Part shown: piece after piece, positions 34,592-45,594 of the stretch
Layout of the letters: each line of letters begins with the position of its first letter
Position numbering within the stretch: position 1 is the stretch's first letter
DNA from: an uncultured Desulfobulbaceae bacterium
Lineage (GTDB): Bacteria; Desulfobacterota; Desulfobulbia; Desulfobulbales; CALZHT01
Assembly (NCBI GenBank): GCA_945787445.1
Contig: CALZHT010000045.1
Location: 23,063 to 73,172 of the forward strand
DNA: 50,110 nucleotides
Direction: 5' to 3'
The notes under the pieces: generated by a model
What the model saw: the letters and a program-made list of their open reading frames with translations, nothing else
Told to the model about the DNA's origin: nothing
Database searches by the model: none
Made by a program: the position numbers and the translations under genes

Positions 34592-35761
34592 ATGGCATAC
34601 GTGCACATGAATCGTGAAGAACATTTCCGCAATGACGGGCAACCGAAACGTATATTGGCCCTTGACGGGGGTGGATTGCGTGGCATTCTGACTCTTGGTA
34701 TTTTAGCGAAGATCGAAGATATCCTGCAACAGCGGCATGGGAACAGTAGTGATTTTCGCTTATGTCACTATTTCGACTTGATTGCCGGAACATCAACTGG
34801 AGCGATAATTGCCGCAACTCTGGCAAAAGGGTGGACAGTTGAACAGATTCGTCAAAAATACATGAGCCTTGGCGAACGTGTTTTCGAAAAAAGCCTTTTT
34901 CGAATGGGATTTTTCCGGGCCAAATACGACGAAAATAAGCTCATCGAAGAACTGAAAGAGGTGTATGGTGATGCTACCAAGCTGGGCAGCCCTGAACTGC
35001 AAACCGGCCTGCTCATTATGGCAAAACGCCTTGATACAGGAAGCCCCTGGCCGGTCAGCAACAACCCAAAAGGCAAATACTTTGATTCGCGTCCAGGCGG
35101 CACGATCGGTAACAGCGAGTATCCCCTGTGGCAGGTGGTGCGGGCATCAACCGCTGCCCCGGCGTATTTTGATCCGGAAACCATTACTATCGTTGAGAGG
35201 ACCGGCTACAAAACAGTGGAAGGTGATTTTGTCGATGGTGGCGCCAGTCCATTCAATAACCCTGCATTACAGGCCTTTATGTATGCTACCATGGATGGTT
35301 ATCGAATCGGATGGCCGACCGGCGCTGATAAGCTCTTCCTTGTTTCGGTAGGTACTGGGGCTGCTGACCCGGAGGTGAAAAAGGCAAACATCACGGCAAA
35401 ACAAGCAATTGCAGCACTCCTCTCGCTAATGGATGATTGTGCTTCGCTGCAAGAGACCATGCTGCAATGGATGACAACTAGCCATACTGCCCGGGAAATC
35501 GATCGAGAACTGGGTGACCTCCGACATGACCTCGTCGCTGGGGCCCCATTGTTAGGATACTTGCGGTACAATGTTGATCTTAGGAAGGATAGTGTCCAGC
35601 AGTTGGACCCAAGTTTGACCGATGCGAACGTAATCGATTCTCTCAGTGCGATGGACGCCCCTGAAAATATGGCTGTACTTCACCGGCTTGGTGTTTTGGC
35701 TGCCGATCGGGATGTCAAAGATGAGGATTTTGCTTCACTGTTCGATCTACCGGCAGTGTGA
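34592..35761 (+). CDS. Patatin-like phospholipase
   Basis: A 389-residue cytoplasmic patatin. The oxyanion loop is DGGGLRGILTLG (near residue 26), the nucleophile elbow GTSTG (Ser near 68), and the second dyad residue lies in VDGGASPFNNPA (Asp near 213), so it looks active. Patatins cut membrane phospholipids and serve as toxic effectors in several bacterial immune systems (CBASS CapV). No cGAS-like synthase is present here, but a TIR/deoxyribosyltransferase-like TPR protein follows two genes later. Strong ribosome site. First gene of the putative operon. Confidence 0.9.
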   Translation: MAYVHMNREEHFRNDGQPKRILALDGGGLRGILTLGILAKIEDILQQRHGNSSDFRLCHYFDLIAGTSTGAIIAATLAKGWTVEQIRQKYMSLGERVFEKSLFRMGFFRAKYDENKLIEELKEVYGDATKLGSPELQTGLLIMAKRLDTGSPWPVSNNPKGKYFDSRPGGTIGNSEYPLWQVVRASTAAPAYFDPETITIVERTGYKTVEGDFVDGGASPFNNPALQAFMYATMDGYRIGWPTGADKLFLVSVGTGAADPEVKKANITAKQAIAALLSLMDDCASLQETMLQWMTTSHTAREIDRELGDLRHDLVAGAPLLGYLRYNVDLRKDSVQQLDPSLTDANVIDSLSAMDAPENMAVLHRLGVLAADRDVKDEDFASLFDLPAV

Positions 35762-35800
35762 AACAAGAACGTTTTTGAATTTTTGAATATGGTACGCGCT

Positions 35801-36190
35801 ATGACAGTTCGCCACCGCTATAGAAAGAAAGCCGATCAATTTGTTGTTGCCGTTCAGGTAAACCTGGACACGGCCGGATTCACCTTTCAGAAATGGGGCG
35901 CCGAGCAGAGGTGCAAACAAGGGGATTGGCTTGTTAATAACCATGGGGATGTCTATACAGTCGACAGTGAAGTATTCGCAAAAACCTATCGTGAATTAAG
36001 CGCAGGAGTCTACGTCAAGACCACCCCGATATGGGCCGAGGTCGCAAACAAGCCTGGAAGTGTGCAGACAAAAGAAGGGCAATCCTTTTACAAGGCAGGA
36101 GATTACCTGGTCTACAACAATAAAGATGGCACGGATGCTTACTGCATCAGCGCAGACAAGTTCGAGTTCATGTATGAACTGGATGAATAA
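35801..36190 (+). CDS. PGDYG-like small protein
   Basis: About 130 residues made of two similar halves: KWGAEQRCKQGDWLVNNHGDVYTVDSEVF and TKEGQSFYKAGDYLVYNNKDGTDAY (positions about 29-57 and 88-112; key residues GDWLV and GDYLV). This matches the PGDYG motif family of unknown function, often found in mobile or accessory loci. The start is uncertain: ATG 35801 keeps the usual YRKK opening, while TTG 35783 and ATG 35789 are also in frame; none has a clear ribosome site. It follows the patatin gene closely. Confidence 0.65.
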   Translation: MTVRHRYRKKADQFVVAVQVNLDTAGFTFQKWGAEQRCKQGDWLVNNHGDVYTVDSEVFAKTYRELSAGVYVKTTPIWAEVANKPGSVQTKEGQSFYKAGDYLVYNNKDGTDAYCISADKFEFMYELDE

Positions 36191-36400
36191 AGAAAGCACT
36201 AGTCGGCCAAAGCCATATACCATAGGGTAATTTTATCTTTACTTTCTGCTGGGCGTAATCTTGCACAATTAAGTCAGAGTGTATCAGGTTTTGGCGAGTT
36301 GCGGGAACCAGTTTTTTCAGAGGCAGGTTAAGAGGTCTGCCCAAAATTTGGCGCCCGAGTCGAATGCAACGGCCATTATGGGTATACCATGGAGGTTGAT

Positions 36401-37702
36401 ATGAATAATGCAGAGTCACAAGGAAAAAACGTTTGTTTCGTTGTTCAAGGCTTCGGTGAAAAGACGGACTTCACCACGGGCCGGAAGTTTAACCTTGATG
36501 CATCGTATGGAGTCATCAAGGAAGCAGTCGAAGAGGCAGGTCTGCAATGCATACGGGCCGATGAGATCCAGCACTCCGGTGTCATAGATGAGCCTATGTA
36601 TGAAATGATTTATCAAGCCGACCTTGTCATAGCCGACCTCTCCACGTATAATGTCAACGCTGCCTATGAGTTAGGCGTGCGATATGGCCTGAAGCCTTTC
36701 GCCACCATTATTGTGGCAGAGGAGGGACTCAAAAATCCCTTTGACTTCAGTCATATTGTTATCCGTCGGTATAAGCACCTGGGCGAGGATCTTGGTTATG
36801 CTGAGGCGCATCGTTTCAAGAAGGATCTCAAGGAAGCAATTATTGAGATCACCAACGCGCAGCAGACAGATAGCCCTGTATATACATTCTTAAAGGACTT
36901 GCAGCCCCCGGTTGAAGAAAGGGAAAACCAGGCAATTCGTTTTGCAGCCACAGAAGCTGAGGGAGAAGCGTCGTCTGAACCGATCCTCGATCAAAGCGTC
37001 AAGACACTCCTTGACCAGGTACACGCTGCAAAGAAGAAGGGTGATTTCGCTTCGGCCAAGATTTTCTTGCAGGCTATCCTGCAGATGCGTCCAAATGATG
37101 ATTATGTGGTGCAGCAGTTGGCATTGGCGACATACAAGAGTGAGTCGCCAAATGCCAAGGCAGCGTTGGAAGAGGCTCTTGATATCCTCAAGAAACTTGG
37201 TCCGGAAACCAGCAACGACCCTGAAACCTTAGGGCTGTGGGGCGCGGTCCATAAACGTTTGTGGGATTTGAGCAATGAGGCAACATTCCTGGATGAAGCC
37301 ATCGCCGCCTATGAAAGAGGTTTCTACCTCAAACAGGACTACTACAATGGGATCAATTTTGCATTTCTTCTTAATGTTCGGGCAGCAGTGGAAGAGCAGA
37401 CAGGAAACCATGCCGAAGCGATCGCTGATTTCATAACAGCTCGCCGGGTTCGCAACGATGTGCTGCAAATTTGTCAAAATGCTCTTGAGTCTGGAGTGCA
37501 GTCAGAGGCAGACAAGTATTGGATCCTCGCCACCATGTGGGAGGCTGCTGTTGGGCTTGAAAACGAAGCGGAAGTATCAAAGTGGGAAAGGCAAGCTGAG
37601 GTGGCGGCAACCGAGGACTGGATGCTGGGAAGTACCCGAACGCAACTGAAGAAACTCCAAGGACTACTTGCAGAATCACCCTTAAGACATCTGCGGGATT
37701 AG
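36401..37702 (+). CDS. TIR/deoxyribosyltransferase-like domain fused to TPR sensor (TRAFs-binding/TPR-S type)
   Basis: A 433-residue protein. Residues about 10-150 form a Rossmannoid domain: NVCFVVQGFGEKTDFTTGR, then ADLVIADLSTYNVNAAYELG, with the Asp, Asn and Glu pattern of nucleoside 2-deoxyribosyltransferase/TIR-like hydrolases. Residues about 200-433 are TPR-like helices matching the TRAFs-binding/TPR-S domain used as a sensor in bacterial conflict systems. The ATG at 36401 is preferred because GGAGG lies 6 bases upstream, inside the longer 36389 frame. With patatin it suggests an effector-sensor immune module (inference). A damaged duplicate follows at 38258. Confidence 0.8.
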   Translation: MNNAESQGKNVCFVVQGFGEKTDFTTGRKFNLDASYGVIKEAVEEAGLQCIRADEIQHSGVIDEPMYEMIYQADLVIADLSTYNVNAAYELGVRYGLKPFATIIVAEEGLKNPFDFSHIVIRRYKHLGEDLGYAEAHRFKKDLKEAIIEITNAQQTDSPVYTFLKDLQPPVEERENQAIRFAATEAEGEASSEPILDQSVKTLLDQVHAAKKKGDFASAKIFLQAILQMRPNDDYVVQQLALATYKSESPNAKAALEEALDILKKLGPETSNDPETLGLWGAVHKRLWDLSNEATFLDEAIAAYERGFYLKQDYYNGINFAFLLNVRAAVEEQTGNHAEAIADFITARRVRNDVLQICQNALESGVQSEADKYWILATMWEAAVGLENEAEVSKWERQAEVAATEDWMLGSTRTQLKKLQGLLAESPLRHLRD

Positions 37703-37818
37703 AGAGCCAAATTGGTTAAAAATGGTACAAAGGATATCCATCTGATGTCCGGTTTTTAATAAATTGAAATTATACAGAAAATTTTATGGAAAGCATAACG
37801 TGACTACCCCGCCTTTTA

Positions 37819-37852
37819 TTTATACATAGCGACATAAGTCGCTATGTATAAA
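37819..37852. terminator. Perfect 15-bp stem-loop
   Basis: TTTATACATAGCGAC and GTCGCTATGTATAAA flank the loop ATAA. It could terminate the patatin operon, although no long T-run follows, or be an operator. It lies 117 bases after the TPR gene. Confidence 0.5.
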
Positions 37853-37962
37853 AGTCAAAAGCAGACTTGCTCCTTAGTCTTGACTCCTGATGGGCAACTT
37901 GGAATCCGGAGTGTAATAAATTCGCCCTTTAAGTGACATCGAAATAAGGAGGTTCAAACGTA

Positions 37963-38244
37963 ATGATCGTTTTTAAAATATTATTTCTACCTCTGTGGGG
38001 GCCGATTTTAGCCCTTTGGTGGGTATCCGCTCTTATTTCGGCGCCATGGCGAATGCTTTTTTATGGAGATAGTTTTCATGGTAGGATTTCCAATTTTCAG
38101 GCGAATAGGCCTGGGTGCTTAGGGGGACTTGGCATGATTCTCTTGATCCCCTACACACTCCCATCGTCCGTTATTTACTTGATTATGGTCGCTCTCAGCG
38201 GGCCTTTTCGTCGATGGATATTTGGGGGTATTGGACCAGACTGA
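37963..38244 (+). CDS. Small two-helix membrane protein
   Basis: A 93-residue protein with AAGGAGG before ATG. Hydrophobic segments at about 4-26 and 52-78 with positive ends predict two membrane helices; the middle reads YGDSFHGRISNFQANRPG. No known family recognised. It is wedged between the intact TPR gene and its decayed copy. Small membrane proteins are frequent in defence loci, but no function can be assigned. Confidence 0.6.
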   Translation: MIVFKILFLPLWGPILALWWVSALISAPWRMLFYGDSFHGRISNFQANRPGCLGGLGMILLIPYTLPSSVIYLIMVALSGPFRRWIFGGIGPD

Positions 38245-38257
38245 AGTAACGCACTCA

Positions 38258-38917
38258 GGTGAGAAGACCGACTTTACAACAGGCCGAAAGTTCAACCTTG
38301 ATGCGTCCAAATGATGATTATGTTTTGCAGTAGTTGACATTGGCGACATACAAGGGTGAGTCACCGGATGCCATGGCGGCGTTGGATGAGGCTCTTGATA
38401 TCCTCAAGAAACTTGGCACGGAGACAGCAATGACCCTGAAACGCTGGGATTGTGGGGTGCGGTCCACAAACGTCTGTGGGGTCTGAGCAATGAGCGGTCC
38501 TTCCTGGACGAAGCCATCGCAGCCTATGAGAGGGGTTTCTGCTTCAAGCAGGACTATTACAATGGGATCAATTTTGCATTCCTTCTTAATGTTCGGGCAG
38601 CTGTGGAAGAGCAGACAGGTAACCATGCCGAAGCAATCGCTGATTTTGTAACAGCTCGCCGGGTTCGTAACGATGTGCTACAATTTTGTCACAATGCACT
38701 TGAAGCGGGCGTGCAGTCAGAGGCCGATAAGTATTGGATCCTCGCCACCATGTGGGAAGCTGCTGTTGGGCTTGAAAACGATGCGGACGCATCAAAGTGG
38801 GAACACCAAGCTGAGGAGGCGACAACCGAGGACTGGATGCTGGGAAGTACCCGATCGCAACTGGACAAACTCCGGGAGCTACTTGTTATATCACCCTTAA
38901 GACTTCTGCGGGATTAG
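38258..38917 (+). pseudogene. Decayed tandem copy of the TPR-sensor gene
   Basis: 38258-38302 matches the N-terminal coding region of the intact gene (GEKTDFTTGRKFNLDA), then jumps directly to the segment encoding MRPNDDYV. The missing 586 bases of the intact copy are bounded by the same GATGC word at 36498 and 37084, so the deletion is consistent with short-homology recombination. Next come a CAG-to-TAG stop (TTGCAGTAG near 38325) and a 1-base deletion near 38430. The rest (38450-38917) stays open and similar to the end. Homology runs about 50 bases past both stop codons. Confidence 0.85.
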
Positions 38918-39145
38918 CGAGCCAAGTTGATTAAAATATGGGACAAAGAATATCCATCTGATGTCCCATAATTAATCCATTCCTTCGAGATCATAGCGGG
39001 TGCTGACAATACATCATTCTGGTTCCCGACCAAGGGGAAATATGGCCAAGAGTCTTATGGTTTGGGGCGGTATCCATGGCCGAGATTACGGCGTTTTTTG
39101 TTCCCAATCCTCTTCGTAAGTTCCTCTCCTCTAATGTCATAATCT

Positions 39146-40168
39146 CTAAGTTGACAGTTTCTCCATTTGGTGAACAAGTGCTTTCGTAGCCTTTGCGTAA
39201 AAGCTCTTCTTTGCCTCTAACGATGTATAGTTTGCACGGATTGTCTCGTCATCAGATGGTAAATATTGAGTATCCTTCAACCAGTCCTCATTTTGCCAGT
39301 CAGCCTTTTCAAGGATCAAAGGAAAGATCACCAGTTCCTCTTCTTCTCGTCTGCGGCATAGTTCCGGCACCTCATGTTTCGGGATGAATTCAGATTCAAA
39401 GAAGTTTTTGCTAATCAGTACGATAGCGAGATCCCTATTGCGAATTTGCCACATTAAATCATCAAACCAAATATCACCACAAACTAGCCCTTTTTCCCTG
39501 TGTTGATCGTACCATAGCGAAATATAGTGTTTGTCTCTTAGTTCAGATTCGATAGATTCTAGGAGTATATGTAGATCTTCTTTGTCCTCGTCCTTGTGTG
39601 CGTAACTGATAAAAATACCCCGTAACCAGGCAAGCGATTCCAACGGAGGGTCCAGAGCTTCAAGGAACTCTTGGACATATTCAACAAGATCATGCGACCA
39701 AGCTTCCTTCTTCATACGCTCAATCAGTTCACATTTGACAACCCAGTGCTGGTAAACTAAGTCGCGAAGTATTGGCTTCACTCGAGGGTCCTTGGGATCT
39801 CTGCCCCACGGCTTTGCGGTTTCGACTTTTGCAATCTGGGCCTGTAAGTCAATTGTCTGGACGATTAACCAGCAGTGCTCTAGCTCCTCATTAGAGAGGA
39901 CTTTCTCAGTCTCTCGTTGCATCACCAGCTCTTTCAATTCCGCAATAAGATCGATTTCCGCCTGGAAAATATCATCTATGTCCGGCCAAACAGTGTTCCA
40001 CCACTTCCATGTATACTGCTTTCGGCATTTGAACTGTGTCTGCTGTCTCTTATACTTTATAACGCGCTTGGATATGCGCCCATGAGCTCGCCCCAATTTA
40101 GAGACTAGCAGGTCGTCGCAGTGCACTTCGAATTCCTTCGCACTGTCTTTAAGCTGATTTTTTGTCAT
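39146..40168 (-). CDS. TIR-domain protein with novel N-terminal region
   Basis: A 340-residue protein. The C-terminal TIR domain (about 184-300) starts GIFISYAHKDED, has LWYDQHREKGL, then IVLISKNFFESEFIPKHEVPEL, where a Glu in the latter segment is the likely NADase catalytic residue. The N-terminal about 180 residues are helical, Lys/Trp-rich and not recognised; they may recognise a trigger or oligomerise. Bacterial TIR proteins commonly destroy NAD during phage defence (family knowledge). The ATG at 40168 follows GGGAG; the frame is open to 40231. It lies 141 bases after the 440-residue gene on the same strand. Confidence 0.85.
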   Translation of the reverse strand: MTKNQLKDSAKEFEVHCDDLLVSKLGRAHGRISKRVIKYKRQQTQFKCRKQYTWKWWNTVWPDIDDIFQAEIDLIAELKELVMQRETEKVLSNEELEHCWLIVQTIDLQAQIAKVETAKPWGRDPKDPRVKPILRDLVYQHWVVKCELIERMKKEAWSHDLVEYVQEFLEALDPPLESLAWLRGIFISYAHKDEDKEDLHILLESIESELRDKHYISLWYDQHREKGLVCGDIWFDDLMWQIRNRDLAIVLISKNFFESEFIPKHEVPELCRRREEEELVIFPLILEKADWQNEDWLKDTQYLPSDDETIRANYTSLEAKKSFYAKATKALVHQMEKLST

Positions 40169-40309
40169 AGTAATGATCTCCCGATGTACACCGCGACCTT
40201 GCACTCTCTCACGGTGTCTTATCGACAACATTATTTGACAATTCTAAGGAGTGTACAATTGTTTATAAATCGACATTTCCTTTCTCTTTTTAACATTTAT
40301 GTCCCGCTG

Positions 40310-41632
40310 TCAGCTCTTTTTTTTCCTTGTCCGAGAAGGGCGAACTGGTGAACTCAGTAACCAATCGAATTCTTCAATGTCTTGAGAAAGACGGTCCACA
40401 AGGTTCATCTTGCCTTGGAGGTTCTCCCTTAATTCCTCTAATCGAAATGCCTCTTTCATGTAATCATACAACTTCGACATCGCATCCCCTGCAATCATAT
40501 ACAGACCTGGATCCTCGTAACTCGTGGATAACCAGTATCTCAACTTTATAAGTTGAAGCACTTGATCTTCTTGATTGAGCCGCCGTCCTTCCCTCAACAT
40601 CTCACGCATTTGTTGCAACGTGTTATCAAGCTCCCTGTTCATCATAATGAGCATATGCCACCTGGAGCGGACGAGTTCACAGACATTTAGGATATCTGGT
40701 AACAGAAAGCTTGCAGGTTGCTCAAACCTGTCTCGACAAATACAGAGTATTGATCTTCGGGAAAAGCGGCAGTAAAGTCGGCTGTCTATATTCTGATTGA
40801 ATAATCCTGGGATACCCCCTGGGGTTGGCGGATCGACGTATGATGGCTCCAATCTTAGCCAATTGTTGCGATCTTCAGCCTTTCCAAGCGAACGAAACAA
40901 AATCGGCGCCAAATAATGTTCATATTGTCTAATCCGTAACATTTTTAAGCGTGCAGGATCTTTTTCTCCTATTTCTTCTACTTCACAGAAGGTCTCCGCG
41001 ACCTCTTTTTCAACCTCTGCTACGGTGACTACGAACGGGCTCTGCACTTCTTTATCTTTCTCAATGTCAATGAAATCTAAAGAAGATTTCTCAAGCCACC
41101 TCAAATTTTTATTACTACGAGCACAGAGATCCTTAACGGTGTCGAAAAAAATATCATAGATCCTTTTCGGCGGCCCATTTTTCATTTTCAGCATATGCTG
41201 TTGAGAGGGGTCGCCATTCTGCTTCAGACGCCCTACAAGACCCAGTGCGTGTAATATGTCTTCTGTTTTGAGGTCGCGACCGCGAGGTGACTTCATAGTG
41301 ACACGTATCGTACAGGTGCCTGCTGTACAAAAAAGTCGAATGAGTTTGCCAACCTCTACCTCGATATCTTTTCCCATTCGGGCTTTAACTGGAGAATAGT
41401 CAACATAAGCACAGCATGACTCGAACTCGAGATGCGGCATAATCCCTTTCCTACAATCTGGGTCACCTATCAGAATGCGCGGTTTAGATGTAATTAAATC
41501 CTTCAACGATGTCGGGTCCAACACGAAACCACCGAAATCATTTTTCGGGGCAAGGCTTAGGGAGTATACGAAGTACACTGTCGCCTTTTTGCACCAAAAT
41601 TCTTTTTTCTCTAAATTTGTCTGGCTATCCAT
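40310..41632 (-). CDS. Large soluble protein of unknown family, partner of TIR gene
   Basis: About 440 residues, no membrane segment, no recognised domain. The N-terminal half is mixed alpha/beta (VYFVYSLSLAPKNDFGGFVLD; HLEFESCCAYVDYSP; CTIRVTMKSPRG). The C-terminal half is helical with a basic end (SPVRPSRTRKKKS). I choose ATG 41632 because GGAGG lies 10 bases upstream, while the longer GTG frame at 41701 lacks a ribosome site. The conserved gene order with the TIR protein suggests a sensor or adaptor, but this is inference only. Confidence 0.7.
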   Translation of the reverse strand: MDSQTNLEKKEFWCKKATVYFVYSLSLAPKNDFGGFVLDPTSLKDLITSKPRILIGDPDCRKGIMPHLEFESCCAYVDYSPVKARMGKDIEVEVGKLIRLFCTAGTCTIRVTMKSPRGRDLKTEDILHALGLVGRLKQNGDPSQQHMLKMKNGPPKRIYDIFFDTVKDLCARSNKNLRWLEKSSLDFIDIEKDKEVQSPFVVTVAEVEKEVAETFCEVEEIGEKDPARLKMLRIRQYEHYLAPILFRSLGKAEDRNNWLRLEPSYVDPPTPGGIPGLFNQNIDSRLYCRFSRRSILCICRDRFEQPASFLLPDILNVCELVRSRWHMLIMMNRELDNTLQQMREMLREGRRLNQEDQVLQLIKLRYWLSTSYEDPGLYMIAGDAMSKLYDYMKEAFRLEELRENLQGKMNLVDRLSQDIEEFDWLLSSPVRPSRTRKKKS

Positions 41633-44693: not shown

Positions 44694-45594
44694 TCACTCT
44701 AGAATGATGGTCTGACCGTGCTGGAGGATGCGAAATTCCTCTGCCGGAATGCTTTGCTCCTTTCTTGCCTTTTTCAGCCTCTCCGGGGGCTCGTCAAGGG
44801 GTTCGTCAGTCAAGATGAACGTTCCCCAGTGGATGGCGACGGAAAGTTTTGCACCCACATCCTGGTGGATTTTTATTGCTTCTTCGGGATTGACATGATG
44901 CTTGGCCATGAACCAGCGTGGTTCGTAAGCGCCGATCGGAATGGCTCCAATGATTGATCGGTGTTGCAATTATTCGCATACCATCGAATTCGCGCTCTTC
45001 CCACCAGTCAAGTTCAAGCACGTTATGGGCACCTCTTTTGCGCATCCACTTCCCCAGGCCGAGCGGCACACAGAACAGGGTATCTTTGCCGCCTTGCCTC
45101 TGTGCCAGGCTCTCAATTGTTTGTTTGTCAAGAGAATCAAAGTGATCATGGGAGATGAGCACTATATCGATGACAGGCAGTTCTCGCAAGGCGATGCCTG
45201 GGGGGACAACCCGTTGCGGACCGGACCATTGCACTGGAGAGGCACGGTGGGAGAAAATAGGATCGGTGAGGATGTTCCTGCCTTCCAGCTGCAAGAAGAG
45301 GGTGGCGTGACCGATCCAGGTAACGGTATTTTGGAAGCGGTTATGTTGCAGAAAGTTGGGGTCGTTTTGCGCCAGGGGAAAATCATAGGACTCAGGGTCT
45401 GGAATATCCTTACCAATTCTGTCAATCCGCCATTCATGGGAAATACTGCCGGAGGTCAGACAAAAAATGAGAAAAATTGAGAGGATTCGCAATAGCTCCA
45501 CCAAAGTAAACCTTTTCCGGAATTCAAGTAACACATTCTTTGAGGCAGGAAATAATGTGATCCCGAAAATAATATAATCAAAGATTACCTTCAT
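44694..45594 (-). pseudogene. Broken metallo-beta-lactamase-fold (NAPE-PLD/UlaG-like) gene
   Basis: Two frames together match one protein. The 5' part (45594 to about 44960) has a membrane anchor, TWIGHATLFLQLEG, LISHDHFDSLD and ELDWWEEREFDGMRIIATP. The 3' part (44969-44694) has PIGAYEPRWFMAKHHVNPEEA and HWGTFILTDEPLDEPP. At the junction near 44960 the segment with the SGDTGY metal ligand is missing and the frame shifts. The second metal motif reads HDHFDS instead of HxHxDH. The protein is therefore almost certainly inactive. Confidence 0.8.

What the first reader, a model, noticed from the sequence alone, without database searches (positions are those of the whole stretch)
39146..41632. Candidate two-gene TIR immune module with an unrecognised partner
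A TIR-domain protein with a novel 180-residue N-terminal region is co-directional with a 440-residue protein of no known family. TIR effectors in bacteria typically act with a dedicated sensor. The neighbourhood (patatin, TIR-like TPR sensor, duplicated genes) is that of a defence island. I see no homology to the Thoeris partner or to known TIR-associated proteins, so this may be an undescribed system.
Basis: partly seen in the sequence, partly recalled or inferred. Interest (0 to 1): 0.72.

Follow-up and report, generated by a model that had tools for sequence, protein, structure and literature searches.

The report
TIR enzyme beside an orphan gene
A bacterium carries a probable NAD-destroying TIR immune protein with an unusual front part, next to a protein that resembles nothing in the collections searched; both genes look real, but nothing yet shows that the two work together.

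Summary
Two intact minus-strand genes are present: a 340-aa protein (39146-40168) with a C-terminal TIR domain, and upstream of it a 440-aa soluble protein (40310-41632) that matches no family. The putative catalytic Glu (E266) is kept and aligns with that of AbTIR and Cat1. The first ~178 residues of the TIR protein and the whole 440-aa protein are orphans: no homologue in Pfam, NCBIfam, PADLOC, PHROGs or PDB, in plasmids or phages, or in the genome samples of the order, class and phylum. The claim of a dedicated two-gene system is therefore untested: there is no second example in which to look for co-occurrence, the genes lie 141 nt apart, and 14 other TIR loci of the phylum lack the 440-aa protein. 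What recurs beside TIR genes is the other neighbour: homologues of the TIR-like/TPR-S protein lie within 3 kb of a TIR gene in 4 of 8 other genomes, in three as the next co-directional gene. The best reading is an abortive-infection NADase that senses through its own helical N-terminus, as SpbK does, in a defence island; the 440-aa gene is an accessory or a passenger. The two-gene hypothesis survives as a minority reading.

The parts
39146..40168 (-). TIR protein, 340 aa: orphan, probably helical N-terminal region (residues 1-178) and C-terminal TIR domain (about 183-310), putative catalytic Glu266
   Evidence: PF13676 E=3.4e-10; Glu invariant in 11 aligned TIRs and aligned with AbTIR and Cat1; N-terminus unmatched
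40310..41632 (-). 440-aa soluble orphan protein, the proposed partner; no transmembrane segment; long C-terminal helices in a low-confidence model
   Evidence: no family or homologue; AF2 mean pLDDT 40; highest 19-residue hydropathy 0.95
40169..40309 (-). 141-nt gap between the 440-aa gene's stop and the TIR start; holds a GGGAG ribosome-binding site and promoter-like matches at chance level
38258..38917 (+). degenerate second copy of the TIR-like/TPR-S gene, convergent with the TIR gene
   Evidence: 87-89% identical to 37084-37721, most of the N-terminal domain deleted, in-frame stop
36389..37702 (+). intact TIR-like (DRHyd-type) plus TPR-S protein, 437 aa
   Evidence: PF20308 E=8e-27, PF13281 E=4e-9; homologues recur next to TIR genes in other genomes
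35783..36190 (+). 135-aa protein between patatin and TPR-S, weak PGDYG match
   Evidence: PF14083 E=1.2e-4, below the curated cut-off
34592..35761 (+). patatin-like phospholipase resembling CBASS phospholipase effectors
   Evidence: PF01734 E=3.2e-26; PADLOC phospholipase effector E=6e-45; NCBIfam CBASS_lipase 113 bits, below its 200-bit cut-off

Best explanation
The 340-aa protein is an abortive-infection TIR NADase. Its N-terminal ~178 residues, probably a helical bundle, act as its own sensor and oligomerisation part: binding a phage component clusters the C-terminal TIR domains, which then split NAD+ and stop the infected cell, as SpbK does. The 440-aa protein upstream is not shown to be required; it is either an accessory or a neighbour in a variable defence island. 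Shown: the TIR domain, the conserved Glu, the orphan status of both other parts, the immune-type neighbourhood. Inferred: NADase activity, phage trigger, clustering mechanism, independence from the 440-aa protein.
For: TIR domain and invariant Glu. N-terminal region helical in a low-confidence AF2 model, helices 17-48, 57-88, 93-117, 130-154. [quoted passage not shown] Patatin and TPR-S next door. None of 14 other TIR loci of the phylum has a relative of the 440-aa protein within the flanks searched, up to about 10 kb, and the genome's five other TIR genes have no second copy of it.
Against: The N-terminal model is poor (pLDDT mostly 30-70) and no sequence similarity to any solved structure was found, so SpbK-likeness is architectural only. 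The 440-aa gene is co-directional and shares atypical codon usage with the TIR gene, as expected if they travelled together.
Confidence: 0.45

Rival explanations
1. A true two-gene system: the 440-aa protein is the dedicated sensor or regulator, and the TIR protein docks on it through its N-terminal region, so that infection releases or clusters the TIR domain.
For: Co-directional and adjacent genes, both with good ribosome-binding sites; both restricted to this genome in all samples searched (for the TIR protein this concerns its N-terminal region); both show the lowest codon-adaptation scores of the genes compared (-0.063 and -0.030 against 0.0 to 0.13 for 18 window genes).
Against: 141-nt gap; no second locus with the pair; other TIR genes of the phylum lack it.
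Confidence: 0.28
2. The TIR gene belongs functionally with the TIR-like/TPR-S proteins next door: TPR-S senses or relays a nucleotide signal and the TIR (or patatin) is the effector. The 440-aa gene is a bystander.
For: In 4 of 8 other genomes with a TPR-S homologue a TIR gene lies within 3 kb; in three it is the immediately preceding co-directional gene, with gaps of about 15 to 135 nt; expected 0.03 under uniform placement.
Against: In the window the TIR gene is convergent with TPR-S, not in its operon, and the nearer copy is a pseudogene. The TIR types in those genomes differ (SLOG-TIR, TIR-WD40, short TIR, DUF4062-TIR). The uniform null ignores clustering of defence genes.
Confidence: 0.17
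3. Chance neighbours: a TIR protein and an unrelated lineage-specific gene inserted between the TPR-S module and an ABC-transporter operon, with no joint function and perhaps no defence role.
For: The 440-aa gene is also co-directional with the upstream transporter genes (129-nt gap); the flanking genes tested are themselves not conserved in the relatives searched, so this looks like a variable region.
Against: TIR plus patatin plus TPR-S clustering is typical of immune islands.
Confidence: 0.1

Closest known systems
SpbK (Bacillus subtilis ICEBs1; PMC12847820)
   Different: SpbK's N-terminal bundle is 94 residues, here ~178 and without detectable sequence similarity to any solved structure; no trigger known here
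Thoeris (ThsA/ThsB)
   Same: Two genes including a TIR protein; ThsB-profile match to the TIR domain (PADLOC E=3e-10)
   Different: The neighbour has no SIR2, SLOG or other recognised domain, so no ThsA is present
TIR plus TIR-like/TPR-S gene pairs (this phylum; PF20308 family)
   Same: A TIR gene near a TPR-S gene, also true in the window
   Different: Convergent rather than operonic here, and the nearer TPR-S copy is broken
CapV-type CBASS patatin phospholipases
   Same: The patatin next door resembles them
   Different: Scores below the NCBIfam cut-off; no CD-NTase among the neighbouring genes that were scanned

Membership tests
TIR-domain NADases (TIR_2) | TIR domain above the curated Pfam cut-off | tested here: met
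   40.9 bits against a 28-bit cut-off
TIR-domain NADases (TIR_2) | conserved catalytic Glu | tested here: met
   invariant in 11 of 11 aligned TIRs; aligns with AbTIR and Cat1
TIR-domain NADases (TIR_2) | NAD+ cleavage | not testable with these tools
   needs an enzyme assay
SpbK | N-terminal helical bundle followed by C-terminal TIR | tested here: inconclusive
   helices predicted at low confidence
SpbK | sequence homology of the N-terminal domain to SpbK | not tested
   the SpbK sequence was not fetched; the N-terminus has no PDB match except a thiaminase-2 chain at E=0.71
SpbK | activation by phage portal | not testable with these tools
   needs experiment
Thoeris | ThsA (SIR2 or other effector with SLOG or macro sensor) beside the TIR gene | tested here: not met
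   the 440-aa protein matches no such domain
TIR + TPR-S pair | TPR-S gene within 3 kb of a TIR gene | tested here: met
   intact copy ends at 37702, pseudogene copy at 38917, TIR gene ends at 39146
TIR + TPR-S pair | co-directional, TIR immediately upstream of an intact TPR-S gene | tested here: not met
   convergent here, nearer copy degenerate
CorA-like proteins (considered for the 440-aa protein) | CorA profile match, GMN motif, two C-terminal transmembrane helices | tested here: not met
   no Pfam match, no GMN, no strongly hydrophobic segment; profile alignment no better than shuffled controls

The most novel reading that the evidence does not exclude
An undescribed two-component TIR immune system in which a 440-aa orphan sensor controls a TIR NADase through a new N-terminal docking domain.
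Probability: 0.25. Interest if true: 0.6.

Novelty: new member of a known kind. Interest (0 to 1): 0.33.

Why it matters
TIR effectors are a widespread immune enzyme, and what makes each one respond is set by the parts attached to it or encoded beside it. This protein has an attached part and a neighbour seen nowhere else in the samples searched, so it could extend the list of TIR triggers; but one example gives no comparative test. The side result, TPR-S genes repeatedly sitting next to different TIR genes, is more readily testable.

Tried and rejected
Weak genome hits of the 440-aa protein (E 0.005-0.01) were inspected: read by eye, the frames hit encode a beta-lactamase-like protein and a universal-stress-type protein, and the third hit runs through stop codons, so they are chance. 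The Pfam DUF6826 match (E 0.017, partial) is below cut-off. A CorA-like fold for the C-terminal helices was tested and dropped; DUF155 (RMND1) was searched in 59 genomes but gave one sequence, too few for a profile. AF2 models of both proteins without an alignment were too poor for fold searching, so none was run. The Acaryochloris plasmid TIR with a similar layout has an N-terminal half that, read by eye, looks CHAT-like and unlike ours. Pattern scans of viral and genome contigs gave no relatives; these reach close relatives only. Flanking genes tested in relatives (substrate-binding protein in 2, MscS in 7 other genomes) gave no usable orthologue, so no empty site could be shown.

Full report
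Observation. Two minus-strand genes occupy 39146-41632. The upstream one, 40310-41632, encodes 440 aa from an ATG with a GGAGG ribosome-binding site; the downstream one, 39146-40168, encodes 340 aa from an ATG with GGGAG. They are separated by 141 nt, or 78 nt if the TIR protein starts at the earlier ATG (40231). Open frames this long did not arise in 61 simulated 50-kb sequences of the region's dinucleotide composition (longest 261 codons).

The TIR protein. Residues ~183-310 are a TIR domain (PF13676, E=3.4e-10). Aligned with ten TIR domains of the same phylum, F, S, Y, W, D, S and E columns are invariant, and the E (E266) aligns with the Glu of the ELDGL-type motif in AbTIR and of Cat1. The enzyme is thus probably intact; activity was not tested. 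All 14 homologous TIR genes found in 394 other phylum genomes match only in or around the TIR domain. Residues 1-178 match nothing in Pfam (best E 0.11) or PDB (best E 0.71), and pattern scans of viral and genome contigs gave nothing. A single-sequence AF2 model makes this part helical but at low confidence.

The 440-aa protein. It has no family in four libraries, no tblastn match in plasmids or phages, none in 145 related, 394 phylum or 257 class genomes beyond three chance hits (overlapping samples), and none in contig pattern scans, which reach close relatives only. It has no hydrophobic segment strong enough for a membrane span. Its model is poor (pLDDT 40), with long C-terminal helices best predicted. 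It is an orphan; its fold is unknown.

Are they a system? For: co-directional, adjacent, both (for the TIR protein, its N-terminal part) confined to this genome in the samples searched, both with the weakest codon match to neighbouring genes (the comparison set was also the training set, so this is indicative only). Against or neutral: no overlap or tight coupling; no relative of the 440-aa protein within the flanks examined, up to about 10 kb, around 14 other TIR genes; one copy in the genome against six TIR genes.

Neighbourhood. On the opposite strand, convergent with the TIR gene, lie a patatin resembling CBASS phospholipases, a 135-aa protein, an intact TIR-like/TPR-S protein, and a decayed duplicate of the latter. 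Homologues of the TPR-S protein were found in eight other genomes of the phylum sample. In four of them a TIR_2 gene lies within 3 kb: a SLOG-TIR (G493), a TIR-WD40 (G445) and a 130-aa TIR (G180) directly upstream and co-directional, and a DUF4062-TIR two genes away (G017). Uniform placement predicts 0.03 such cases (P about 4e-9); this null ignores the clustering of defence genes, so the figure overstates the surprise. In a fifth, a clostripain-family peptidase gene sits directly downstream (G430). The pattern suggests a TPR-S component with exchangeable effectors, in line with published placement of TIR, DRHyd and SLOG domains in nucleotide-based conflict systems (PMC9503650) and of ASK-signalosome components in bacterial conflict systems (PMC8195603). 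That the N-terminal half of the window protein is DRHyd-type, and that patatin fills the effector place here, are my inferences.

Mechanism. SpbK shows that a helical N-terminal bundle plus a C-terminal TIR suffices for defence: the bundle docks on the assembled phage portal and clusters the TIR domains into active NADases (PMC12847820). The window protein has the same layout at low confidence, so I favour a self-sensing NADase (0.45) over a two-gene system (0.28), a TPR-S-linked effector (0.17) or chance neighbours (0.10). Thoeris membership fails on the missing ThsA.

Verdict. A real, probably active TIR protein with an orphan N-terminus and an orphan neighbour. It is interesting as a lead, but the central claim of a new two-gene system rests on adjacency in one genome.

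Noticed in passing
window 36389-37702; L030, L050, L051, L053: TIR-like/TPR-S genes recur next to different TIR genes in this phylum (4 of 8 other genomes within 3 kb), suggesting a TPR-S component with exchangeable effectors.
   Followed up: partly
window 36455-38981: Duplication of the TPR-S gene with its 3' flank, spacing about 1216 bp; the second copy has lost most of its N-terminal domain and has an in-frame stop.
   Followed up: yes
L052 7809-10253 (G430): A clostripain-family (C11) peptidase gene directly downstream of a TPR-S gene, perhaps another effector in this cassette.
   Followed up: no
window 44806-45594: A UlaG-like metal-dependent hydrolase ORF whose C-terminus looks frameshifted or truncated (NCBIfam PRK00685 match covers about half the profile).
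   Followed up: no
G493:C1:788440-792972: Four further TIR_2 matches within about 4.5 kb, some 12 kb from the SLOG-TIR/TPR-S pair: a dense TIR island.
   Followed up: no
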